Shown piece after piece: positions 13,526-43,887 of a stretch of 64,000 bases of DNA. Each line of letters begins with the position of its first letter. Within the stretch, counting starts at the first letter, position 1. Source of the stretch: Apophysomyces variabilis (lineage: Eukaryota; Mucoromycota; Mucoromycetes; Mucorales; Mucoraceae). A program made the position numbers and the translations under genes. Location: the NCBI GenBank assembly GCA_002749535.1, contig MZZL01000380.1:913041-977040 (forward strand), given 5' to 3'. The notes beneath the pieces are model-generated. The model was not told where the DNA came from. It did no database searches and saw nothing but the letters and a program-made list of their open reading frames with translations.

Positions 13526-16500
13526 ATGGATCCTGACGCGTCCTGTAAGCAATCATGGGAAAAGATGATAAGAGTTTACCTCTGATTTCCTTTTTTGAAG
13601 TTGTCACTAAAATAGAAATGCAAAACACCATGCTGGCATGGTCACAAAAGCACCTCGAAAGCTACGTCGAGCTATCGCTATTGCCTCCTCTTCACGACTT
13701 CACCACTACCTATTGGTCAGACGGTAGTGCATTCCTCTGTCTTGGTCACCGCTTTTTCCCGGACTCTGTACCTAATCTTGTTGGCATGCTTCATGACAAG
13801 GATCCTCAACACAATTTGTCAACTGCACTTAAGCTTTTTTCGGACCGTCTCAAGGTCATCGAGCCCAAGGGCCCCTTGGACGAAAGTACCGTTATTTTTT
13901 ATCTGTGTGAACTACGCAAGACAATAGAACAAGCTGAAATGGAGGATATGCAGCAACTCAGCGTCGGTGAAACTACTGTGTTGGACGAGACGTTTGAACA
14001 GCACGCAACATTAGTGCTCAGTAAGATATGCCAGTTGCGTACACAACTGAACGATTTATCCTTTCGGCATCAGTATTCTCATGAAGGAAACACATCGACA
14101 ACAACTACTACCCATTCGTCTTCTCGAGCACCCTCTCCCTTCCCACGAGATACGGCTGCTTCGGATGATGGGGAGGCATCCACAACAGATGCTGATGAGC
14201 AGCTAAGCCCGCAATATACCCGATCAGTCCATCATCCAGATGATCTGACTCACTATCAGTCCACTCTAAAAGATTTTGAAGCCAGCCTGACCACGCTGGA
14301 GTCGAACGAGCTGGCCAGCTTTCGGGCTTATGTCCAAACAATGCCCGAGGGCACTCGTACAAACCCCGAAATCAGCGCACGGATTCAGGCCATTGATGCA
14401 GCACACAATGCGCTTGATCTGCAGCTGCAGAAAGGTGCCACAGATTTAGATACCCTTCGTAGTGGCATGATCTTCTCTCAGATCACCACCCCCATTCGGA
14501 ATGAACTCGAGTTCATTCAAGCAAAGATGCTGAAAACGACTACTACGGAAACAGGCATCCAAGATTTAGAGGAACGCTCACGAAATGCAGGTCTCATGAT
14601 CAGCAAAGTCCAGGTGCAATATGCCGATCTTCTAAACAATGCAAACGATGAACACAGCTCGTATCATGCCCATTTCGATGTACTGGTACAGAAATATAAG
14701 CTGATCTGTGCCTGGGTGGATGATGTCCGCGTGTGGTTTATCGAAGCTGAACGCATTCGACAATGGATTGAAGAACGCATAAGGCTGCTAGAATCAAAGC
14801 CTGTGATTGATGCCCTGGATCTTATAGAAATTGACTATACTATGGCGGAGGTGGATGCCATTAATTCTGAACATGAGAACCTCGAGAAAGAAGTCGAGAA
14901 ATTTGATAAAGAAGATATGACACGATTACGAGCTCATGTCAAAGCATTAACTGGAAAGGAACGTGGCAACAAAGATTTAAGTCCGGCAGATACAACAACA
15001 ATCGAAATTACCTTTACGACATTGATGACATTGGATCGACTTATCCATTTACTGCGTCGACGCACACATGACTTGCAGATTTTAACGTTGCGCATGTTTT
15101 GGGAAAAGGAATACCAGAAAGCGATTGCTTGGGTTCGGGAAACCAATGACGAAGTTGAGGTGTTCATACACGAGAAGGCCCGTTGGAGACTAGAGGAGTA
15201 CCGAGAATTATCACTGGATGAAAACGATCATAAATTACAATTCGAGTCGGTGAAGAATACGATCATCGAAGTCCTCCTCGGATTTGAACAGCGTGTAGCA
15301 GCATTTGACCAGGGACAATTCACCGCAACTGTAAATACCTATCAAGACCTCGATGACTCTTCCAATGTGGAGCTGCCCACACATTTGGAATCACGTCAGG
15401 TCGCCGTGGAGGAAGCCTTTGAGGAACTCTCCAATCGAGTAGCATTCGCCCGACAAGTGGTAGAACAACGTTTGAGTGTGACAGATTTTCTTTACAGGGC
15501 TGACATGCTGAAAACTGAAGGTGAACAATTACGCCAAGAAATTACGGCTGCTGAGCTCACAGCAACTTCTTGCGACACGGACAAGGAATTCACCGAGAAA
15601 GTGCAACTGTTTCAAGAACAGGCAATAAGGCTTGTTACCGGCGTAGCGCCACGCATCTCTTATCCAGAAACGACACATCCTTCAGATCAGGAAGATAACT
15701 ATGATGCAAATGAGTCCATTCGGAGTATCGTTGGTGCTCGAAAGTCATCGCTTGTTCTATTTGGGGAAGCCCTTGATCATAAATTGAGCTCGTACAGAAG
15801 AGTGTTACAATTGCACAAGCGAAACAAGCAGTTGTTAGAAGAAATTGCACGTATTCAGAGTTGGATTGAGGAACGTGCACGGAACGTTAAAAAGGCAAAA
15901 GTCGACGTGTTTGTCGGTAAATGTGCACTGGATGAAACGGACCTTGGGCGGCTAAAGAAGGAACGAGATGGGCAACTGGCGAAGATGAACACACTGAAAG
16001 AGAACGATATTAAAAAGCTCGAACGCAATATTCATGGATTGGAATCGTCCATCAAAGCTTCGGAAGCACCTGTTGACAGTGAGCCTCTGAATGAGGGCTT
16101 ACAAAAGATTTTTGAAAACCTGGGTACGCTTGATGATGTGTTACAGCAGCATTCACTGGAATTGGACGTACTGAGCACGAGAATCAGTTGGGAAAGTCAG
16201 CACGCCAAGGCTTCCCAATGGGTGGCAGCAATGACGCACAAGGTTTGGGACTTTTTGTCTCAAAACGCGCAGTGGAGACCGGAAGATAGTGAACAATCTG
16301 TCCAAGACACTGAGAAATGGGAAAATATCGAAGACGAATTCCAGACGATGCAACGAAAGATCGATGACTTTCAAGAAAAGCTACTTAAATCTACCGATCA
16401 ATCCTTTGCTGAATTGGCTCAAGGGTTCAGCACGATTATCAAGAAGGATGGACCTATGGAAACACTAGAAGAACAGGAGCGCATCACGCCGGAACATGTG

Positions 16501-19500
16501 CAACGACGTCACAACATGCTTCATGATAATTTTGCTCATCTCATGGACACTTCCACGTTTACAAAGGCCGTAATGGATCAACGTGTTGCCTTAACAGAGT
16601 ATGTCTCGAAGGTGCATACTGCACAAGACTCTGGTATGGAGATCCTTCGTCAATTAGAGGATGCTCTCGAAACGATTATGGCCAAGAAAGTGGTACCTTT
16701 ATTTGAGGATGCGGTGCGACAATTTGATCAAGATATTTGCAAAATCTGGTCGCACTGTGGCTCGCTTATCCCGTACCCTACTTGCCCTGCTGGTGCACGT
16801 GCGAGCCGTCCGTCCACTGAGGATGATGACATCAATAACGAGATCAATACTGTTGTTCTTAAACTGTATGATGAACTGCTCCAGCTTTCCAAGAAGCTGC
16901 ATGAACTGCTGTCGATGTTCAACTCAGCAGCAGGATTAAAGCGTGAAATTATTCAATGCGCAGAACGAACCAGAAGTCTGAACGAGCAGATTGTTAAGCT
17001 CACGAGCCAGATCACGTCGGAGAAACTAGATCTCAGTTCTTCTTCAACTACATACACAGATCAACAGATTCATGCGTTGATGGAGTCTAATCAGGGTTAC
17101 ACTGGCGATGTTGCTCGGCAATTGGTTGAGCTTACCAGGATGAAACAAACCACACAGGATCTCGAAATGCGTATCAATTCGTCCACATGCAAGGCATTGG
17201 ATGCATCTGTTGTAACGAGCATGCTAAGCGATTTGCAGATCAATAGCGAGAAGCTTGTTGAGATATCAGCCATACACTCTATAGAACTGACGGCGTACGC
17301 AGCGCGTATTCAATGGGAAACTGAGCGACAGGCAACTCATGCCAAAGTCATACATTTGCAGGAATTGTCTTTGGACTTGATGGACCGAAAAAGCATATGG
17401 TTATCCAGGGCGACTGACAACTCCGAGGACACTATGCTGGGTGAATTGAAAGAACAATGTAGTACTATTGCGTCTGAAATCATCGACTTGTCGCAAACAA
17501 ATTTGAAGGCCATGGAAAACACTTTCAATCAAGTTCAACGCCTTTATGCAGAATGCTCAGTTGTGGTGCCCACAGAAATTGTCAATCAACAACGGGACAT
17601 ACAGAAGCTTGTTGTGAAATTGCAAGACACAAATGCGCAACGTCAAGCAGAAATTGATTTCCTCATTTCCCGCGTTGAATGGGACCGTGATATGGACAAG
17701 TGCTTGGATCGATGCAAACAAAACGAGCATGATCTGGAAAACTTGATTTGTGAGGCAAGATGGACACCGGATGCATATGAGACTAGAGAACCAGAGAGAG
17801 ATCCTTTCATTAATGCTGTGAATGAAGCAGCCGACGAGTTTGGAAAGCTGCTAACGAGACTTGATGACCTCAAAAACCACAAGCATGCATCACTCTTGTC
17901 GGACGGCGTACAACGACGTGTCACATCCGTTACAGATGCTCTTCAACGTACCCAGAATCATGTTCAATTTGCTGGACTTGTAATTGAACAGCGTAGAACT
18001 GTCAATGAACTGTTTGCCGATGCTTTGGATCTTGAAAAACTGGCCGAGGCAACAAAGGCAAGCATTTTAGCAGCGGAGGGTGCTTCTCAAGATAATGATC
18101 AAGCTTTGGAACGGTACAACGCACGACTTGCTATATTCAGTGAAAGTATTGAAAACCGTATACCGTATCCCATTCGTGAATATGACAATCATGGCCGAGC
18201 GCTGGATATCAAGGCCAATGTTGTCGTGCAGGAAACAATGGATACTCGTCATGCGCGCTTGAATGAACTATCCATGACACTTCAATCTATCCTAAAGGCA
18301 AAATTACGTCTGTCGCGACGTAAAGCTGCTGTGGAATCGTACCTTTCCGAGGCACAGGTGGTAAAAGACTGGATTGAACCGAGGATGAAAAACATTATGC
18401 AAGCTCTGGAAGCTACAAGCCCAGAAGACCTTCCGAATTCAATGGCTGTTGTAGATGCTATCAGTTCAGCAATACAGGCTTACACGTCATCATATAACGC
18501 ACTCAAAGAATCTGCCAAAAGTTATACAGCGTCTATGCAAGGGGAAGTAAAAGAATCAGAAGATGAAAACGAAGTCAGCGAAATCACTGAGAACATCCAG
18601 AAGATTGATTCCACACAAGCCGAAGTTGATCAGCTTTGGTCTAAGATAACGACAGTAATAGCGGATGCAAAAGACAGACTATCCGTAGCATTGCGGCTGG
18701 CAGAGTACACAAAGCTGGTGGATGGAGTCGACAGTAATCATGAGAAGTTGCAAAAGCTATTAGTTCAAACCGAAGTGTCCGAGATCACAGATGAAGTCAT
18801 ATCTGACTGGCAAGAAGAGATGGAGAAGATAAAGGTCGAGGGAATTGATCAGATTCATGGCCGCTTATTGGCTGAACAGCAAAGTGGCACACAGAGTAAG
18901 GCTGTAGCAAGCGAGGATCTGCAAACCATGCACACTGCCTACAACCGAGTGGTAAAGGAACACAGCAAGCTGATCGGCAAATTACAAACAGTGGCCAAGA
19001 AGGCTAGCAGCTATCGTCTGAAGAAAGATTATGCTACAGCAGCAGGTCGTATTGAGGAATATATTAGAAAAACCACACTTGAACTGCTATCTATGCGTGA
19101 ACATGGCATTGTATCAGGCGACAAGACCCAGAATACTGCAAATTGCGAGGAATTATCTGCGTTGTATGAGAAGCACAAAGTTTCTTTCGAAGAATACACG
19201 GAGCAGTTTGATGAACAGCGATCATTCTACCGTTTCATCCAGCTACAGAAGGTTGAAGATCTAGAGGCAGTCGATGCTAGGCAAAAAGTGCTCGAAGGTT
19301 CATGGAAAGCCTTAAAAGCGGACTTGGCAACTGCTGGGACCTTTGTCGATAGTGTTGTTCAATGGAGCGAGCTACACAGCATGCTAAACGAGGTCAATGG
19401 CAACCTTTTGGTTAATCTAGAAGGAACCATTGCTGAACTTGGAGAGGAATTATTCGATAAAACCAAGATAGCAGCCCAGTTTCAGGTGGTTCATGCGCGT

Positions 19501-21897
19501 TTGGATGCAACTAGGACTATTGCAAGCAAGATAACTGTCATTGATGAGGACGATAACCGCTCACGGTTCCATTCGCACTATGATGTAGTCTTAGCCCGAG
19601 TCAATGCTGCCGAGGCCGAATTGAAGAGAAAAGAAAAAGCTGCGTTGAAACGAGTTGCTCACAATGAATGCCAGAAATTGCTGGAGGACCTTAGACTTGC
19701 TGCTGACAAGGAAACAAAAGCGATCAGAAGCCGTATAACTTTGGTTGTGGAAACAGATATGTTTGAACAAGGAGCAGGAGCTGTTGAAAAGTATTACCGA
19801 AAAGTGACGACACAAACAGCAGCAAGCGAAGGCACATATCAAACTCTGACCAAAGAGTGCAACGAGACACTTCAACCAAAGATTGAAGAATTATATCGAA
19901 CATATGAATGCGAAGAAAAAATTGACATCTCTGGCCTGGAAGTATCATTAAAGACACTGTGCGATGAATTGAATATGGAGAAGGCTTTGAACGATATAGT
20001 ACGGCGTGTCCTAGCAAATGTAAAAAGCAGCGACGACATATTGTCATGGATCAGTAATTGTAAGAATGCTATTAATGCTATTTCCAACGATACTGTTATG
20101 ATGGATGACAAGGAAGCTGAAATGGAAGCCGAAGATGTGGAGAAAAAAATTAGTGAGTTCGAGCCTATTGTACGAGAATTTGGAGAAATATCAGCGAACC
20201 TACTCGGTAGCATTGTAGCCGCTGAAAGAAATACGGAAAACCCAGCCATCGATCATCTCAAGAGAGGTGTGGAAACCCGTGCAGAAAAAGTCCAAGCGGA
20301 ATGGCAAGAAACATTGGGTCAAGTGGCCGATCTAAAGAAGACCATTGCGAGGACACAGCAGGGTGTTAGCATTGTTCGAAAGATGAAGACGATCATGATA
20401 CACCTCGGAGAAACACGGGATCACGTAGCTTCATTACAGATTTTCGAAGATCAGGAGAAGCCTCTAGTATTAAGCGTCAGGGAAAGTGAAATTTTAACGA
20501 TGAACGAAGATTTGAGAAAGATAGAACAGGAGGTGACAGACCAGATAGTGCGCGAAATCAATGAATTAGACGAATTAATCGCCCAGTTCGAAGACACGGA
20601 AATGACATTTACACGGCAGCGTACGGAAGTTGACGCAGCGTTTAGTAATTGGAAAGAGATCATTGAATCAAAACGGCGTGAAGTTGATAGAGCGTTACCA
20701 ATTACGAAATATCTGACGATCACCGACGACAGTGAGATTCTTCTTGGTGCCCTTGAAGAAGCTGTGGAGAAAGCAGCACCACATCGAGCGACCATGATCG
20801 GTAGCAGTTTCAGCAGAGCAGATCTACAAGCGAAATTAATTGAACTCGATGCCCGATACAAATACTATGAACGCAAGATTGTACAAAGTCTCGATGCAGC
20901 TGAAGAATCTTTGGGTGATATAACAGAGGAGGAAGCCAGTAAGCAGGCTAAGGAACATTTCCATGGATTGAAGGACTACTGGGAAGCAGTGGATAATCAA
21001 GTGAAGACACGCAAAGCCGATCTCCAGAATGCTACAGAAACTGCGGTAGATCAAGAAGAAAGGCGTCAGTTTCGAAACCGAAAGTCATCCTTACCTACAC
21101 GCAAAGCGGCCTCCGTTTTACGAGAATCGCCCCGGGTTATACCAACAACAAGTTCATCGAGTATACGAACAGCGCCGACGGTCTCAAGCAGGCTTGTACC
21201 GTCGTCCTCCTCACCCCGCCCTCATGGCAACCGGTCCATGAATCAACGATACCTTAACCCGCCTATTCTGGAACGACATCAACCATCTAAATCAGCCACG
21301 AGTATCAAGCCAACCATCCGTGTGAGCCGACCTGCACCGAACGCCTATGTCGCAGATCCTGACAATGACTTGGATATGGAGATTGGCCGTATTGTCAATG
21401 AGACACCCTATAAAGTGAAAGTCAAGATGGTGCCAGGAGAGGTTGGTCGCTATTGGTTTGGTGAAGTTAACCCCAAACTATGCTACTGTCGTGTACTGAA
21501 GAGCAAGATGGTCATGGTTCGTGTGGGTGGTGGATGGACTGAGCTTTCGCAGTTCTTGCGTGATCATGCTCTTCTGGAAGGCGATTTTATACCCAAAGCA
21601 AGGGAAGAGGAAGCGGAACAAGCAGCGTTGCCATCGATTCAGGAAGGATTTATTGAGACTCGCCGAGCTAAATCACCCTCAGGTCGACCTATTCTTCGCG
21701 GCCGAAGCACTTCACCAACACCGCCTCCGATTCTGAATCGTTCTCAGTCCAGCGGTACGGGCTATAAGGACGGTGATAAGTTTATTGCTGTAGATCGGCA
21801 TGGCAACCAATTGGAAGTCAAGATGACCCGTGCTGGGTCTAACGACTACACTCGACGCCGTTTAAGTAGAAAGAAAGATTCTCAAAATTTATCATAA
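13526..21897 (+). CDS. Spectraplakin-like giant: CH domain, rod, GAS2 domain
   Basis: My model has exon 1 at 13526-13544 (MDPDAS), a 56-nt GT-AG intron, and exon 2 at 13601-21897, giving 2771 residues. An unspliced reading from ATG 13555 adds a different 16-residue start in the same frame. Residues about 5-105 look like a calponin-homology domain (TKIEMQNTMLAWSQKHL, later WSDGSAFLCLGHRF). The middle, about 2400 residues, is almost wholly alpha-helical and spectrin-like, with recurring helix starts RMFWEKE, RISWESQ, RIQWETE and RVEWDRD. A Ser/Pro-rich linker precedes a GAS2-related (GAR) domain at about residues 2596-2665 (VKVKMVPGEVGRYWFGE, then GGGWTELSQFLRDH). CH plus spectrin rod plus GAR is the layout of animal spectraplakins, which link actin and microtubules. 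The function here is inferred. One nearly uninterrupted 8.3-kb exon is unusual beside its many-exon neighbours. Confidence 0.85.
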
Positions 21898-32641: not shown

Positions 32642-33791
32642 ATGGAGCAAGTCATGGATAGCCTCGTTAAAACTTTTCAAGAAGTGTTCGTTGATATACC
32701 TGCCAAATATAAAAAGTACGCCCAGGACGAAATTGAGCGCTTCAGTCGCATAGTTAAAGAAAAGGGACTGACAGTACCAAGGCAGCAGAGCAGTGCAGTA
32801 TTCCCCGTAGTAGTGCACACAAGCTATTAGACAAATTTAATGCTGCAAGCGGGTCTGTACTTCCTGGTAGCGTTCAAAGAAACTTGAACGGGATCCAAAA
32901 CAGTTGTTTCCACAACATTCAGCCTTTTTGATTGAACTATCTCAAGCAAATCCTTCGACTCTACTTGAGAAAGCAAGACAAAAGCTGTCTGAGCATTTTA
33001 ATAGCCTCGAAATATCTACTTCTGGTTTTTAAAAGCATATTCGGCAGAAATTTTCAATATCATTAAAGCAAGCGACGAAATACCGTTTAGAGGGTGATGC
33101 TCCAAGAACTATTCAGCTTCACTTTAACATTATCAATCATTGGAACGCCGCAGGTATCAATTTTTCTGAAAATTAAGTCTTTGTCGAAGAGACTGGCTTT
33201 TACTCGCAATTAATGAGAAGTTGTGCATGGTCAAAGGGACGGGATCCAGCAATTGTGAGGGTTCTTACACAGAAAGGTGTGAACATAAGCATTGCTGACT
33301 GTATCTCTCCTTTTGGCGCAATTTGTTTTTCCAGAGTTGAACGTTTGAAAAAACAGATCCAGCATTCATTGAAAGAATTCCCTGAGTATCTCCTCCAAAG
33401 AAAAGTTAGTAGTAAAAGCGAATCAAAGCTAGCCCAGCTTAAAAAAGGTGTAACAGCTTACCACATTGTCAAGTTCATGGAAAAAGAGGTGTTTGTTGTT
33501 ATGGATAACTATAGAATTCATCACTCTCATTTTGTCCTTGATGCCATCAACGAACGTGACTACAAATCATTGTTTGTGCACCCGTATTCGCGTTTTTGAA
33601 CCCCATCGAAGAATGTTGATCAAAAATGAAGAAGAACATAAGAAGTAACCCCACACGGCAAATTAGACATGCTTACACCGCGTATTACAGAGGCTTATAA
33701 ACAGGTCACTGTCGTTGACAGCCACAGCTGGATAAGACACTCTGAGACTTACTTGGCTCGATGTATCCAAAAAGAATTGGGCTGGAAGTAG
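32642..33791 (+). pseudogene. Decayed IS630/Tc1-family transposase
   Basis: Fragments of one transposase can be followed in order through several frames. An N-terminal helix-turn-helix start (AKYKKYAQDEIERF) lies near 32697-32740. A LIELSQANPSTLLEKARQKL segment lies near 32930-32990. The first catalytic part reads FVEETGF near 33182-33200. A GVNISIADCISPFG block lies near 33280, then KKGVTAYHIVKFME and the second aspartate motif VVMDNYRIHH near 33440-33525. VHPYSRF is followed by a frameshift and NPIEE-like remains, ending in CIQKELGWK before the stop at 33789-33791. Several stops and frameshifts make it non-functional. Many Mucorales genomes carry related elements (general knowledge). Terminal repeats were not identified. 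Confidence 0.75.
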
Positions 33792-34979
33792 CTCAAGTAA
33801 ACATAGAACTCGTCTCAAAAAGCTTTAGACACATGTAATAAAAATGTATACTCGTCTTGATACATCACAAATTTCTAAAAAACGCATTCCTCTGAATTGC
33901 TCAGGTGAATTCGTCTAATAAAATGATCCAAAATCACAAATCTGATTGGTCTAAAACAATACCAAATCGTCTCCATTTCAAGCTAAAAAGCTGTACACAA
34001 GGGTCTTGGGGAGTTGCATTTTTCAATACACGCATATAGTCCTAACGTTACACAAAATGTTTTAAACAATGATAAGAATAATCGAACTGGCAACGCAGGC
34101 ATGCCCTACGAACCGGATGGCACGCTTGATCCATAACAGCAATAGTTGTCATCCCAACCAAAATATCTCCCCAAGCCAATCTGATAAGATACGATACACA
34201 AGAGAGTGTGTCTACTGAGTTACTGACATGATACCACGTGTTTTGTTTTTCACCACAGAAACGGTAAAAAATAAGGTTGAGGTGAGCAACCAAGGGGTCG
34301 TGTTTTACATTTAATGCTACGGAAGAAGTAGAACAATAGAGAACCAGATACTTGGTACGAAGCGACTGTTTTCAGCGGTACGTATGACAGTGTAACCAGA
34401 AGTTGCATTCTCCTGGGAACAATAACTTGAAACATACAATAGAAGGGAAAATAGGCAAGACGGTTTGCCATAGAAGGGATAGATACAAGATAGACGTTGC
34501 TTTATCCTAGAAGCAAAATATCTGGGCACCAGCTAACCTTCGTACAGATGTACATAGAGAAGCTAAAGTCTAACGAGTCCGAAACCAGTTGCTTACTAGA
34601 CTAAATGAACCAAGAGCGTAATAAGAAGAAGAGGAAAAAGAAAGAGAGAATAAGTCCATCATGAACAATGGGGAATATATCATCAAACGATAGGTGAATT
34701 GGTATGGTCCGGGATATTTCAGATCGTGGTTTCTGTTCCTAGAAGTGGAGTATCATGACGACTATGCTTACTCCGTTCGACAGCAAGTTGATCGATCGGA
34801 GCGAAAGATGTGGGGAAAAAGCCACCAAGCTTCAGATCGGTTGGCACGTAGTTGTATCGCTCTCGCTATCGCAACGCTTGGGTTTCAAAGAAGACAGGGG
34901 ATAGCTGTCATTTCCATTACAGCCTTCATTCAGTGTTCTTTTCACTACTCTTTCTTACAATCGCTAAAAACCATGAAGG
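33792..34979. other. Intergenic and promoter of DNA methyltransferase
   Basis: About 1.2 kb without a recognisable gene. A 105-codon open frame at 34694-35011 overlaps the methyltransferase start in another frame and has no motif. Confidence 0.45.
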
Positions 34980-35011
34980 ATGATGAACCGACTCGAGATC
35001 AGCAATCCTGA
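34973..35011 (+). promoter_or_regulatory. Overlapping upstream ORF at methyltransferase start
   Basis: ATG at 34973 opens a 12-codon frame ending TGA at 35009-35011. It begins 7 bases before, and runs across, the main ATG at 34980 in a different frame. If the mRNA starts upstream, ribosomes must bypass it by leaky scanning, which would damp expression. Confidence 0.45.
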
Positions 35012-38000
35012 TGATCAGTCATCCTGTCCTCCTTATGAGCAATACTCAATACTTGACTGTCTCACAGTCAACACCGATGACAGCATGATTCCAGAGATGC
35101 TGGAAAAAAGTGCTGCGGATAGTTCCTTAGGAGAGTGCCTCACGTTGCTGCACGGGCCAGAAGCACCTGCATCTCCCGTGCCCAATGCAGAGGGGAATAA
35201 ACGCAAATGGTTAGATGTGGTTCTTGATCATCCCCGCGATTGTGACCTCAAAAACGCGACACAGAGCAGCAAACAATTACGCGGCCCTATTGATTTGGAA
35301 CCACTGTCTATGTTGGACAAACCTTCTCTGTCGTCAGGATATTATGCATTGTCCATTGCTGATGAGAAGAAACTTTATGTCAAGGATGTGTCGATGAAGG
35401 ATACATCTAATACCGTGACAACTATAGATATAACAGAAGACGATGTTAAAGCCGTTGTGAATATTCTTGGGACAGTACTTCAACAAGTAAAGGAGGATGT
35501 CCGACGCGATATGATGAGCAAAATTGGTGATAATGGTACGTAATAGATAAGAAAGAAAAGGACTACGACATGAGGGAAGAGAAAGGGAACAAATTGGAGA
35601 AAGAGAAAGAGAAAGAGAAGGAAAAAATGGAAAAATAGGAGAAAGAAGAAAGAAAAAGGGGAGTGATAGATGAGATGAGATCATCGTACTGTGTATTGGT
35701 TTTACGGGATATCCGAAAAAAGAAAATAAGAATGTTAGATTGAAATCAAAGCTCCATTATCTTTCATGTAGGCTCAACTTATGTTCCTTCTGCTGCTATT
35801 CAGTTCCTGTTACGCTTGAATCATACCGAAACAAACAATGATATCGATAGCCCAAGAGCTAACGCACTGGCGACGGAGCTTTACTGCTTGATGACAGGCT
35901 TCATGACGGTGTACCTGGTGTTCATCGAAATTTTATTGCAGGAGCTCTTGCCTGGAAGCTCACTGGAAGCATATATGGAATGTTTCGCAGAAGATAACGT
36001 ATTCAGGCTTCCCGACGACATCTTTCTTTGGCATCACCTTCACAGTCGCAGACAGACGACTATCTTGGATGATCTTCGCCAACGACTCAAGGTTTCCGGT
36101 ATTCGCTTTCGGTCACTTCAGCTCGTAGACAGCATTTTCTCACGGTTTTACACGACTCATTTTTTGGAAGCGGCAGCACAAAAGCATCGGAAAGATCATG
36201 GTCAATTTTATACGCCTCAAAGTGTGGTCAGATTCATGTGGAACCGTTGCCTGAGCCCTAAGGATCGTAAAGGAGGTCATGTGCCTCGGGTGTTTGATCC
36301 GTGCATGGGTATAGGATCTTTTCTATGTGAATTTTTGACAGGCTTGATTGACACTAGTTTGCGGACGGCATCCGTATGTAACAGTGCCGAACGACTAGAA
36401 CAGTTACTACATGATATTGCTGAGAATGTGTGGGGCGTGGAAATCGATCCATTTGCTTATCACTTGGGAAAGCTGAATTTTATGGTCCATTTATTCCCCC
36501 TTTATCGCCGTTTAGTGGACCTGAACCGCAATCAAATACCACGGATCGGTCGATTACGGTTGTTTTGTAACGATACGCTCAAGTTGACAGAGCAATACGG
36601 AGCTTCTCTAACAAACGTGATATCTGCATGGGAACGGGATCAACTACGTCAGTTACGAAATGCCACTGTCAAGTTTGACTATATCGTCACTAACCCGCCT
36701 TATATGATTCGTAAAACGGGGTTTATCACCGTTCCCGACCCGGCTTTGTACGACGACCACGTATTAGGGGGTAAAGGGACACAAGCATATATGTACTTTA
36801 TGTGGATTGCTCTGCAACGATGCAATGAGAATGGTGGACAGGTTTGTCTGATCACACCTAGTCAATGGATGGTCTTGGAGTTCGCCGAGCATTTGAGGTA
36901 AAACAAAGAAAATGATATGTTCTTGGTCAATGTTTATCTCATTACTGTAAACAAATGGAAAAGGTCATGGATTTGGCAACATTGCGAGATTACGGAAATA
37001 TTCCAGTTTGAACCATACAAAGTTTGGCCGAAAGTTCAAACGGATTCGTTAATATTCTGCCTGAGGATGAGATCATCGTCAAATCAGATAACGGAAACCA
37101 AGTTTTTACGCCATTTATCACGAAAGATGACTCTAGAAGACATCCTTCGTTCCTATGCTGCCTTTGACGAACGGAATCCAGACCCATTGATTACGTATAA
37201 GATCACCCCAACAAACGCTACGTATATCCACAAGTCAAATCACGCCTCTTTCTCCTTCTTGTCGCCCACATCTTCCGTTTCCGATCGTTTAGTCAGCCTA
37301 ACCAGTCATCTTCCTAAGCTTTGCGATGGTGAGCTGCGTACTTGCGATACGGTGTCACCCGAAGCTCCACTCGTCTGGCATCGAGGCCCAAACACACATC
37401 CTGTCTATGCCCTGGTTGTCCGTACACGTTGGGCATTGGATACGTTTGGTAAAGATACATGCGAGCGCTGGCTACGACCCGTCTTTTACTGGAGTGGAAA
37501 GTCTTCAGCGACCGGTGCAGATCAAACGAGTAGCAAAGAGGCGTTGTTTTGGCATAATCGCGATGCCCTCCGGTTGAGCAAGGAAAATTCACCAGCCGAA
37601 GCTTATGTTCCATTTGGTCGTGTGGACGAACATGATGGCAAGACTAGTTTTTATTCGATGATCTTAGTGGACAAAGAAGGTGCAGCACGTTTAATGGATG
37701 AGCACAAAGAATATGGCGATACTGCACGGGACGCTGCGCTTCACCGTTATTTGTCCGAAGCAAGATCATTACTGCAGCCCAACAAGACGGATCGTCAGCT
37801 GGCCTGGTGCCATTTCAACAAGTGTGGTATAGAGATCCCGGTAAAGATAGTCCATCCCATCAACTTTGGCTATTTCACTCGAACACAGCCTCGGCAAAGA
37901 TTCTTTATTGACCGTGAGCAACAATGTCTAACTAATCAATGCATGTATTTTACGATCAAGCCCGAATGCAACCTGTCGGCTGAATATTTTTGTGGCATCC

Positions 38001-38605
38001 TGAATTCTAGCACACTCCAATTCTTTATCCGAGATAATTGTTATTATGACCAGCAAGGTCGAACCCGGTTCTTTGGGAAACACATGGCCAGAATACCGTT
38101 TTCTCCGCCGAAAGCAATCCATGCAGCGGCTATGACAAGCTGCGTTCAACATTTGATTGCAACCAGGGAATGGATTTACGGCATAATACGGTTGGCTGGT
38201 CTGAGGACAACCATGGAGAAGGTCCGCCGATGTGATTGGGATATACGTGAAGCGGACAAAGTGTTAATGTCACCGTACAATGGTACAGATTGGAGACAAC
38301 GTGTGCGGTTAGGCAAGACTCACTGGATCGATCGCCAAATGCACGAAGATACCACGCGATCGGCGCGTGTGAGTATGGCAGAAGACTTGACACGGCTGCT
38401 CAAAATAGCCTCTTTATTTCAGTACTGTATAGACCATATGGCGTATGCGATTTATAATATTCCTGTTGACTTGCAGCAGGGGCTCGAGCAGGAACTTGGG
38501 CTGGCTCTGACAGAGGCGTGGCAAGAGACTGTGCATGCGCAGACCATGCCCGTGGAGCGATGGTGGCCAGATGCACTTGAACTGGCCAGATCTATCGTAG
38601 GATAA
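34980..38605 (+). CDS. Gamma-class N6-adenine DNA methyltransferase, R-M type
   Basis: Three exons, 34980-35535, 35772-36897 and 36964-38605, give 1107 residues. Residues 1-190 are acidic, low-complexity and unrecognised. Residues about 200-325 are helical, like the N-terminal part of bacterial HsdM/Eco57I enzymes. Motif X is HGQFYTP (328-334), motif I FDPCMGIGSFL (360-370), a following acidic strand VWGVEIDPFAYHLGKLNF, and catalytic motif IV DYIVTNPPY (NPPY at 493-496). Further on come GGQVCLITPSQWM, ITEIFQFEPYKVWPKVQTDS and a C-terminal TaqI-like target-recognition region with YFCGILNSSTLQFFI. The X-I-IV-TRD order defines gamma-class amino-methyltransferases, and NPPY predicts N6-adenine. 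This is not the MT-A70 type known for fungal 6mA. No PD-(D/E)XK nuclease motif is evident. Two genuine introns show it is a resident eukaryotic gene; bacterial origin is inferred. Confidence 0.85.
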
Positions 38606-42457: not shown

Positions 42458-43887
42458 TTATCTACAGTGTCTTCTTCTGTCGAAAAAAGAAAATGAATCA
42501 TGGCCTGACAGAGCAAAACATTCGTGTGCTCGGTCGTATCGTTTCCCTATTGGCCCCAGAGGATGGGGATGATCGTGATGAATCTTTGTCGAGTTGACGA
42601 AAGGATGACTTTCAAGCAAAGCCAAATTAGATAAGGGTAGTTGAGGGTAAAGTCCATGGAGTTCCAGCTGTTTCTCCGACACGCAGCCAACGTCGATTTT
42701 ATAATGGCATAGAGGATCGTTACTTCGTGGCAAGATATCTAAATCCAATCCTATTGAGAAAGGCGAATACCACGTCCTGTTGGGTTGACTGTCAACATAA
42801 TGTTCAGAAAGACGAGGGGATTCCACCACGGTATATTCATCATCCGTTGTTGCGGGCGTTTCGGCTGTTTTGTCATCCTGTGTCAAATCAGACATCGTCT
42901 CGTCGAAACGTGCCCCTGCCGGTTCCTGTGCATGGTCCAAGCAGGGTGCTTCCGTCCACTTGCATAGATCAGTCTGTTTGTCGCTTTTCGTCTCTTCTTC
43001 ATGATCGTCATCGTCACAGACTGTATTTGTTGAGGTAAAGTTCCAATCGTTTTCAGCGGGATGTTCATTGTCGAGTTCCAAAAGTGGTTCTGGTTTTTCC
43101 TGGTTCTGTTCTTGGTCTTTGGCAGTCTCTACAGTGGAAGTTTTTGCGCTACTGACGCGTTGCTGAGTACGGTAACATTTACGTTGGACTTTCTTTTCTT
43201 TGGATTCTTTCTTTCTCCTTTTCTTGCTTTGTCCGATCTCCCGATGACTAGGTCCGCCGCTATCCACAAGTGATCGGCCGATTTCCGAGGCTTTTTTACC
43301 ACAGAAGGCCAAGCCTTCGCATGCCAGCAAGCCTGCTGTTCGACTTCTTTTCTGTAATTTGTCGAAAACACGTCTGTAGGGCATGTGAAGCTACACAAAT
43401 TGACAATTGTCAGATGATTTTCATTCTTTTTCGGGGACGGAAGGTTGGTTTGTTATTTTGTGCACGGATATATCGAGAAATAAAAACTTTTATCCTGATC
43501 CCCGCTCCGCCCCGGATTAAGTAAAAAAAGAAAGAAAATTCCCGCTCTTACTTTTTGAGAAGACACGAGTGCAAGCATCACGACGGCACAAGCCATCCAG
43601 GGCGATCGTTTGATTCGTGATAACCATCGCATACGTTTGACAGGTGCATGATAAGAGGTTAATGCTTCATCCCATGGATTTTGACGTGCATGAAATACAA
43701 TGGCAGCTGAGACTACTCTTGCAATGGATTGACTGGTAAGCAATTGAGAGTGAAAAGTCAATAGACACCAAGAACGAAGGTAAGTGTAGATTGAGGTAGT
43801 GAAAATGGCGATGAGGGAAATGAGGATTAGAACAACAGGCGAGAGTACGATCAGTGATATAATTCGTAAACCGCGAGAAGTGCGCAT
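42458..43887 (-). CDS. Membrane protein with acidic cytosolic tail, unknown
   Basis: Exons 43887-43552 and 43390-42458 with a 161-nt intron give 422 residues. Residues about 9-32 form a strong membrane segment (IISLIVLSPVVLILISLIAI), and a second hydrophobic stretch lies near 92-108 (WMACAVVMLALVSS). The rest is hydrophilic: a lysine-rich cluster (KKRRKKESKEKKVQRK), then a long acidic region rich in Asp, Glu and Thr, and a C-terminal part with YSPFSIGLDLDILP. I do not recognise the family. An endoplasmic-reticulum or organelle membrane protein facing the cytosol would fit. The last few residues could be altered by an unrecognised 3' intron. Confidence 0.6.

What the first reader, a model, noticed from the sequence alone, without database searches (positions are those of the whole stretch)
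34980..38605. Bacterial restriction-modification-type adenine methyltransferase resident in a fungal genome
Seen: a 1107-residue gamma-class layout (QFYTP, DPCMGIGSFL, TNPPY, then a TaqI-like target-recognition C-terminus) split by two introns whose phases close exactly. Known: fungal N6-methyladenine is usually attributed to MT-A70-type enzymes, and early-diverging fungi are rich in 6mA. Inference: a captured R-M-type methyltransferase, without a visible nuclease, could be a second 6mA writer or a genome-defence marker. The 190-residue acidic N-terminus has no bacterial counterpart that I recognise and may be a eukaryotic targeting or regulatory addition.
Basis: partly seen in the sequence, partly recalled or inferred. 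Interest (0 to 1): 0.87.

Follow-up and report, generated by a model that had tools for sequence, protein, structure and literature searches.

The report
Fungal MetB DNA-adenine methyltransferase gene
This gene of an Apophysomyces fungus is the local copy of MetB, a bacterial-style DNA-adenine methyltransferase shared by many early-diverging fungi and already linked by gene deletion in Mucor to a second kind of adenine mark, so the find is real but known.

Summary
Window 34980-38605 (+) encodes a 1107-residue gamma-class adenine-N6 methyltransferase in three exons with two GT-AG introns. Pfam Eco57I, N6_Mtase and TaqI_C match above their cut-offs. It lies among fungal genes in a 1.06 Mb contig of a 38.7 Mb genome, one locus found, so contamination is very unlikely. 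The host is an Apophysomyces (97% to A. ossiformis over residues 190-1107).

It is not a lone capture. In some searches every hit above 200 bits belongs to one family, nearly all with early-diverging-fungus names; the next, prokaryote-like rows score 63 bits or less. This family is MetB of Lax et al. 2024 (PMC11258239): deletion in Mucor removes asymmetric 6mA at AAAACA, and transfer from bacteria is proposed there.

New details: the target-recognition region is as conserved as the catalytic part (56% against 57%), suggesting a fixed target; the tail carries a KRKWLDVVLD motif whose WLxVVLN/D core recurs in Glomeromycota. The genome also has AMT1-like and MTA9-like genes.

The parts
34980..35535 (+). 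exon 1 of the metB orthologue (residues 1-185): poorly conserved tail plus start of a segment conserved in the family
   Evidence: conservation
35199..35228 (+). tail motif KRKWLDVVLD (residues 74-83): basic cluster followed by WLxVVL(N/D), the latter shared with Glomeromycota, Jimgerdemannia and Calcarisporiella members
   Evidence: core pattern found post hoc in 12 of 77 tails, mean 0.006 in shuffles
35536..35771 (+). intron 1 (GTACGT...ATGTAG, 236 nt)
35772..36897 (+). exon 2: segment before the methyltransferase domain and most of that domain
36134..36490 (+). Pfam N6_Mtase best stretch (residues 307-425)
36203..36217 (+). motif X, QFYTP (residues 330-334)
36296..36325 (+). motif I (SAM binding), DPCMGIGSFL (residues 361-370)
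36422..37027 (+). Pfam Eco57I methylase match (residues 403-582), interrupted by intron 2
36689..36703 (+). motif IV (catalytic), TNPPY (residues 492-496); NPPY invariant in all 53 rows of alignment A1
36898..36963 (+). intron 2 (GTAAAA...AAAAG, 66 nt)
36964..38605 (+). exon 3: end of methyltransferase domain, target-recognition region, C-terminal part, stop
37880..38098 (+). Pfam TaqI_C specificity-domain match (residues 867-939)

Best explanation
The gene is the Apophysomyces orthologue of fungal MetB, a one-chain adenine-N6 DNA methyltransferase without a detectable nuclease, descended from a prokaryotic restriction-modification-type enzyme. Inferred mechanism: the gamma-class domain (motif X QFYTP, motif I DPCMGIGSFL, motif IV TNPPY) transfers a methyl group from SAM to a flipped-out adenine, and the C-terminal TaqI-like region chooses the site. 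By analogy with Mucor MetB it should write asymmetric (one-strand) 6mA at an AAAACA-like site in nuclear DNA, beside a separate MTA1/MTA9-type MT-A70 pair for symmetric ApT 6mA. Shown here: gene structure by homology, catalytic motifs, family membership, one locus in the genome, genomic embedding. Shown by others in Mucor: the gene is required for asymmetric 6mA and for the motif. Inferred: activity, motif and nuclear location in Apophysomyces.
For: Pfam Eco57I, N6_Mtase and TaqI_C above cut-off. The A. ossiformis protein P0001, 97% identical to this one over residues 190-1107, is 47% identical over 956 aligned columns to the Mucor circinelloides protein P0017. 74 of the 77 hits with 203 bits or more carry early-diverging-fungus names; 3 carry no organism. 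80 family rows stand on one side of a branch with support 100 against 10 outgroup rows. NPPY is invariant in 53 of 53 aligned rows. The target-recognition region is as conserved as the catalytic part, mean identity to P0001 0.56 (45 rows) against 0.57 (47 rows). One locus by DNA and Eco57I searches; the other N6_Mtase hit looks HemK/PrmC-like by inspection. A downstream gene of the window has its match two locus tags from the metB match in A. ossiformis and in Apophysomyces sp. BC1034. Mucor metB deletion: 70-75% less 6mA and loss of the AAA6mACA motif (PMC11258239 section 11). AMT1-like and MTA9-like genes in the same genome.
Against: No methylome, transcript or enzyme data for this species. 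That P0017 is the very protein called MetB is inferred from species, Pfam domain and family; the paper's accession lists are in supplements that could not be opened. Mucorales do not come out as one group in my quick tree: Gongronella, Cunninghamella and Syncephalastrum rows fall apart from the others on long or weakly placed branches. Apophysomyces groups with Phycomyces, in which 91.72% of 6mA sites are reported as symmetric (review passage), so MetB output may be low here. The paper's MmeI-type recognition domain (PF20466) was not found by hmmscan. No structure could be computed.
Confidence: 0.87

Rival explanations
1. A recent, species-level capture of a bacterial restriction-modification methyltransferase.
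For: Domain make-up is of bacterial type.
Against: Relatives at 33-77% identity to P0001 are spread through the early-diverging fungi. The prokaryote-like rows are 21-25% identical over 24-36% of the query. No confirmed relative in the bacterial/archaeal genome scan, which used two peptide patterns only; in plasmids the best place covers 39% at 21.7% and in phages the listed places cover 12%.
Confidence: 0.03
2. Bacterial contamination of the fungal assembly.
For: None found.
Against: Two introns, a 1.06 Mb contig with fungal-type neighbours (NDT80/PhoG, CRIM/Sin1, SPRY, GAS2, HLH, kelch-BTB), and a neighbouring gene kept in two other Apophysomyces records.
Confidence: 0.01
3. A fungal protein of this family that no longer methylates DNA by itself and acts on another substrate or as a DNA reader.
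For: NPPY-type motifs also serve protein methyltransferases such as HemK (recalled); activity was not tested in Apophysomyces.
Against: The site-selection region is as conserved as the catalytic part, and the Mucor deletion loses a sequence-specific DNA mark.
Confidence: 0.06

Closest known systems
MetB of Mucor (Lax et al. 2024, PMC11258239)
   Same: PF02384-type methyltransferase of early-diverging fungi with a C-terminal target-recognition region; the Mucor circinelloides protein P0017 aligns with P0001 from its residue 150 to 1079.
   Different: P0001 and the window protein have about 120 more residues at the N-terminus, with a KRKWLDVVLD motif not found in the P0017 tail. The paper describes the recognition domain as MmeI-like (PF20466); here the only recognition model over its cut-off is TaqI_C, and in P0017 TaqI_C stays below its cut-off.
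Type II and IIG restriction-modification methyltransferases (Eco57I, Alw26I/Eco31I/Esp3I, MmeI, BseCI)
   Same: Gamma-class motif order and catalytic plus recognition parts in one chain.
   Different: No nuclease domain detected; matches cover only parts of the chain; no NCBIfam cut-off reached.
Type I modification subunits (HsdM)
   Same: N6_Mtase domain; 3ufb, a Type I subunit, is the best solved match of the family profile, and several others of the 12 listed are Type I.
   Different: Recognition region on the same chain; hsdM model 17.6 of 242.75 bits.
Prokaryotic defence methyltransferases MADS Mad2 and BREX PglX
   Same: Partial profile matches over the methyltransferase domain.
   Different: Far below curated cut-offs (39.9 of 720 bits and 39.6 of 400 bits).
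MT-A70 writers (AMT1/MTA1, METTL4)
   Same: Also adenine-N6 methyltransferases of the same genome.
   Different: Another family (PF05063), not matched by this protein; AMT1/Mta1 complexes make symmetric ApT methylation in the literature.

Membership tests
Fungal MetB (clade 1 of Lax et al. 2024) | PF02384 N6_Mtase match over cut-off in an early-diverging fungus | tested here: met
   66.3 bits against 20.4
Fungal MetB (clade 1 of Lax et al. 2024) | Falls in the single fungal clade apart from prokaryotic enzymes | tested here: met
   80 family rows on one side of a branch, support 100; quick method, 10 outgroup rows of which only one bears an organism name; the window protein is represented by P0001
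Fungal MetB (clade 1 of Lax et al. 2024) | C-terminal target-recognition domain | tested here: met
   TaqI_C over cut-off; the paper's PF20466 assignment (HHpred) was not reproduced by hmmscan at E up to 1
Fungal MetB (clade 1 of Lax et al. 2024) | Writes asymmetric 6mA at AAA6mACA | not testable with these tools
   needs a methylome or enzyme assay
Type I HsdM | Separate specificity subunit HsdS and nuclease HsdR nearby | tested here: not met
   no such family in the 20 ORFs scanned, of 23 other ORFs of at least 150 codons in the window; recognition region on the same chain
Type IIG/IIL (Eco57I, MmeI) | N-terminal nuclease fused to methyltransferase and recognition domain | tested here: not met
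   no nuclease family in the Pfam scan at E up to 1; a diverged nuclease fold cannot be excluded without a model
Type IIG/IIL (Eco57I, MmeI) | Eco57I methylase domain | tested here: met
   82.5 bits against 25.3
MT-A70 | PF05063 match | tested here: not met
   one search lists no such match; the MT-A70 places of this genome lie elsewhere

The most novel reading that the evidence does not exclude
MetB has been remade as a eukaryotic chromatin enzyme with a frozen target. The recognition region, usually the fastest-changing part of restriction-modification enzymes (recalled), is locked across early-diverging fungi, with highly conserved cysteines (842, 847, 886, 919 in P0001) that may bind zinc and that the five prokaryote-like rows aligned almost wholly lack (one has a cysteine at 919). 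A tail with a basic cluster and a WLxVVLN/D docking motif may bring the enzyme into the nucleus or to a partner.
Probability: 0.3. Interest if true: 0.45.

Novelty: already known. Interest (0 to 1): 0.25.

Why it matters
Fungal MetB is an unusual case (judged from general knowledge) of a prokaryotic restriction-modification-type enzyme that became a stable epigenetic writer in eukaryotes. The Apophysomyces gene adds a member from another genus of Mucorales. The conserved recognition region predicts that a similar short motif is methylated across the early-diverging fungi that keep the gene, and the tail motif offers a handle on how the enzyme was adapted. Both can be tested, but the central discovery is already in print.

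Tried and rejected
Structure prediction of the A. ossiformis protein with alignment A1 was asked for 11 times (queue full; no new jobs accepted), so no fold search was possible and the zinc-site and MmeI-or-TaqI recognition-domain questions stay open. The donor search gave nothing close: genome contigs (two peptide patterns from fungus-conserved blocks, 9 pattern matches, none confirmed), viral contigs (32 pattern matches, none confirmed), plasmids (7 records, best covers 39% of the query at 21.7%), phages (19 records, 8 listed, each covering 12%). PCNA-interaction (PIP) boxes: two matches among the 92 family rows with the anchor motif (P0036, P0088), both within conserved domain blocks, rejected. 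An SP-I/V/L pattern followed by two basic residues occurs in 9 of those 92 rows, 7 of them Mucorales; not tested against chance. The tail motif was seen by eye in alignment A2 and counted afterwards; two regular expressions each give 12 proteins but differ by one member (P0045 or P0046). The count uses 77 of 95 family rows; 18 were dropped for lack of the anchor motif or of a tail. The tree uses 80 of 95 family rows (15 dropped as short or lacking QFYTP/NPPY) and the quick method; the program warns of long branches (among them P0050, P0088, P0016, P0038 and the outgroup). A literature search on MADS returned nothing relevant in the 5 titles listed. The search on Apophysomyces plus methylation (listing of 10 papers only) showed no title on DNA adenine methylation in that genus. 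PMC8298701 was seen in passages and not used.

Full report
The gene. The ORF listing and raw sequence show three open blocks at 34977-35543, 35744-36901 and 36902-38605 on the + strand. Enumerating GT-AG pairs near the expected junctions gave 12 combinations that close the frame; the one with the most consensus-like donors by inspection (introns 35536-35771 and 36898-36963) gives 1107 residues from the ATG at 34980 to the stop ending at 38605. Both introns contain stops in all three frames and have 34% and 27% GC against 47% in the exons. The join across intron 2 falls inside a block conserved in the family, which is the best evidence for splicing short of RNA.

What the protein is. Pfam gives Eco57I (82.5 bits), N6_Mtase (66.3) and TaqI_C (30.3), all above the gathering score; MmeI_Mtase and UPF0020 match below cut-off. 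TaqI_C recurs at the corresponding place but below its cut-off in four of five other members scanned (P0003, P0017, P0038, P0041) and is absent from P0054. The motif order QFYTP (330), DPCMGIGSFL (361), TNPPY (492), then a C-terminal recognition region, is that of gamma-class adenine methyltransferases (motif classes recalled). By sequence the best solved chains are 8cxz/7lni (site-specific adenine methyltransferase), then 3ufb (Type I subunit) and BseCI; with a family profile 3ufb leads, then BsaXI, 7lo5 and several more Type I subunits, MmeI being last of 12. NCBIfam models Alw26I-type, BREX PglX and MADS Mad2 match partially and far below their cut-offs. PADLOC lists 52 families for P0001, of which the best 25 shown are a mixture of Mad2, Type II, IIG, Type I and PglX. 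I lean to one-chain Type II/IIG enzymes as the nearest relatives, because Eco57I outscores N6_Mtase and the recognition region is on the same chain; the published account speaks of Type I and IC, and the profile matches to solved Type I subunits speak for that side. No phylogeny of these bacterial classes was made.

Where it sits. The window is G000:C64:913041-977040, in a contig of 1,061,583 bases of a 38,696,054-base, 126-contig genome. A DNA search with the catalytic part finds only itself and Eco57I only this locus. The second N6_Mtase hit, at C95:2333270 (23.5 bits), looks by its sequence like a HemK/PrmC-type protein methyltransferase (naming by inspection). Of 26 ORFs of at least 150 codons in the window, 3 are this gene and 20 of the other 23 were scanned with Pfam: 10 match (HAGH_C, zinc dehydrogenase, SPRY, kelch-BTB, alpha/beta hydrolase, CRIM, GAS2, NDT80_PhoG, HLH, peptidase M20) and 10 do not; no nuclease or restriction family appears. 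Shorter exons were not scanned. A. ossiformis EC973_003821 is 97% identical over residues 190-1107. The ORF at 42461-43390 (-) is 94% identical to EC973_003823, listed with a contig of the same length (233,777), and its BC1034 match DFQ28_002159 likewise goes with DFQ28_002161 on a contig of 54,116. That these pairs are neighbours is read from locus tags and contig lengths. So the host is an Apophysomyces and the gene a settled resident; the species was not determined.

The family. The search with residues 190-1107 returned 82 proteins: 77 at 203 bits or more (74 with fungal names, 3 without organism), then 5 at 49 bits or less, one of them named Terriglobia. A profile search returned 86: 81 at 263 bits or more, some without organism name, and 5 unnamed at 63 bits or less. 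Only the 8000 and 7998 best candidates were scored. Fungal names cover Mucorales, Umbelopsis, Jimgerdemannia, Calcarisporiella, Mortierellales, Glomeromycota with Geosiphon, Basidiobolus and Paraphysoderma (group membership partly recalled). In the tree (80 of 95 family rows, 10 outgroup rows, quick method) the family is one side of a branch with support 100; Apophysomyces joins Phycomyces (99), 12 Glomeromycota rows group (100), 31 rows of Mortierellales, one of them unnamed, group (100). Against simple vertical descent, the Mucorales rows are not one group: Gongronella, Cunninghamella and Syncephalastrum stand apart, on branches the program flags or leaves open. No near relative was confirmed in the bacterial and archaeal genome collection by two peptide patterns, in viral contigs, or, beyond 39% coverage, in plasmids and phages. 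The donor is unidentified.

What is known. Lax et al. 2024 (PMC11258239; abstract and sections 11, 13 and 14 read, other passages by search) named the PF02384 protein of Mucor MetB. Its deletion cut 6mA by 70-75%, mainly affected asymmetric 6mA and removed the AAA6mACA motif. [quoted passage not shown] Two later papers refer to it (PMC13297926 and PMC12695648; passages seen). That P0017 is MetB itself is inferred; accession lists are in supplements that I could not open.

The second writer. PF05063 finds four places in this genome that I read as three loci. One is closest to solved chain 7cv6 (METTL4-type, recalled), one fits the MT-A70 chain of 7f4r and relatives (MTA1/AMT1; 105.8 bits against 48.9 for METTL3), one fits MTA9/AMT7 (43.5 bits against 25.6 for METTL14). 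The queries were single exons. An AlkB-like locus is at C82. So both MT-A70 subunits of the published symmetric pathway have candidates; its DNA-binding protein P1 was not searched, and activity is not shown.

New observations. Across the family the recognition region (P0001 691-945, limits set by me) is on average 56% identical to P0001 (45 of 47 rows, the others too gappy) and the methyltransferase part 57% (47 rows); the prokaryote-like rows fall to 18% (4 rows) and 24% (5 rows). Of the 48 family rows, C842 is kept in 47, C847 in 43, C886 in 42 and C919 in 44 (gaps counted as not kept), while of the five outgroup rows one has a cysteine at 919 and none at the other three. A shared zinc site is only a guess without a model. 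The tail (1-150) is 91% identical to A. ossiformis and 51% to BC1034, against 97% and 85% in the methyltransferase part, and holds KRKWLDVVLD. The pattern WL.[VILF][VIL]L[ND] occurs in 12 of 77 family tails and in 0.006 on average after shuffling residues (500 rounds, maximum 1). That control does not remove relatedness: eight of the 12 are Glomeromycota including Geosiphon, two are Apophysomyces, one Jimgerdemannia, one Calcarisporiella; and the pattern was chosen after seeing the alignment. Most Mucorales and Mortierellales tails lack it, so it is either old and often lost, or convergent.

Verdict. Observation confirmed; interpretation right in kind, published in 2024. Interest is low as a discovery, modest for the fixed recognition region and the tail motif.

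Noticed in passing
L004 (G000:C71:485318-488803), L005/L006 (G000:C95:2658945-2662507), L007 (G000:C75:237445-240774): Only three MT-A70 loci were found: METTL4-like, AMT1/MTA1-like and MTA9-like. No METTL3/METTL14-type RNA pair appeared, which may mean loss of mRNA m6A writing in this fungus or a limit of the search.
   Followed up: partly
window 13549-21894 (+): A single uninterrupted 2782-codon frame with a GAS2 domain over cut-off and a calponin-homology match just under cut-off (25.8 of 26 bits): possibly a large cytoskeletal linker protein.
   Followed up: no
window 42461-43390 (-): An ORF of 310 residues with no Pfam match and two relatives found, both in Apophysomyces (94% and 61%): a genus-restricted gene as far as the search shows.
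   Followed up: partly
P0050 and P0088 (Gongronella butleri): Two divergent MetB-family proteins of one species, listed with contigs of the same length (933,292) and on long branches, unlike the one locus seen here; possible relaxed or new specificity.
   Followed up: no
window 33177-33599 (+): A 140-codon open stretch upstream of the gene resembles a DDE-superfamily transposase remnant by eye (recalled resemblance); not scanned.
   Followed up: no
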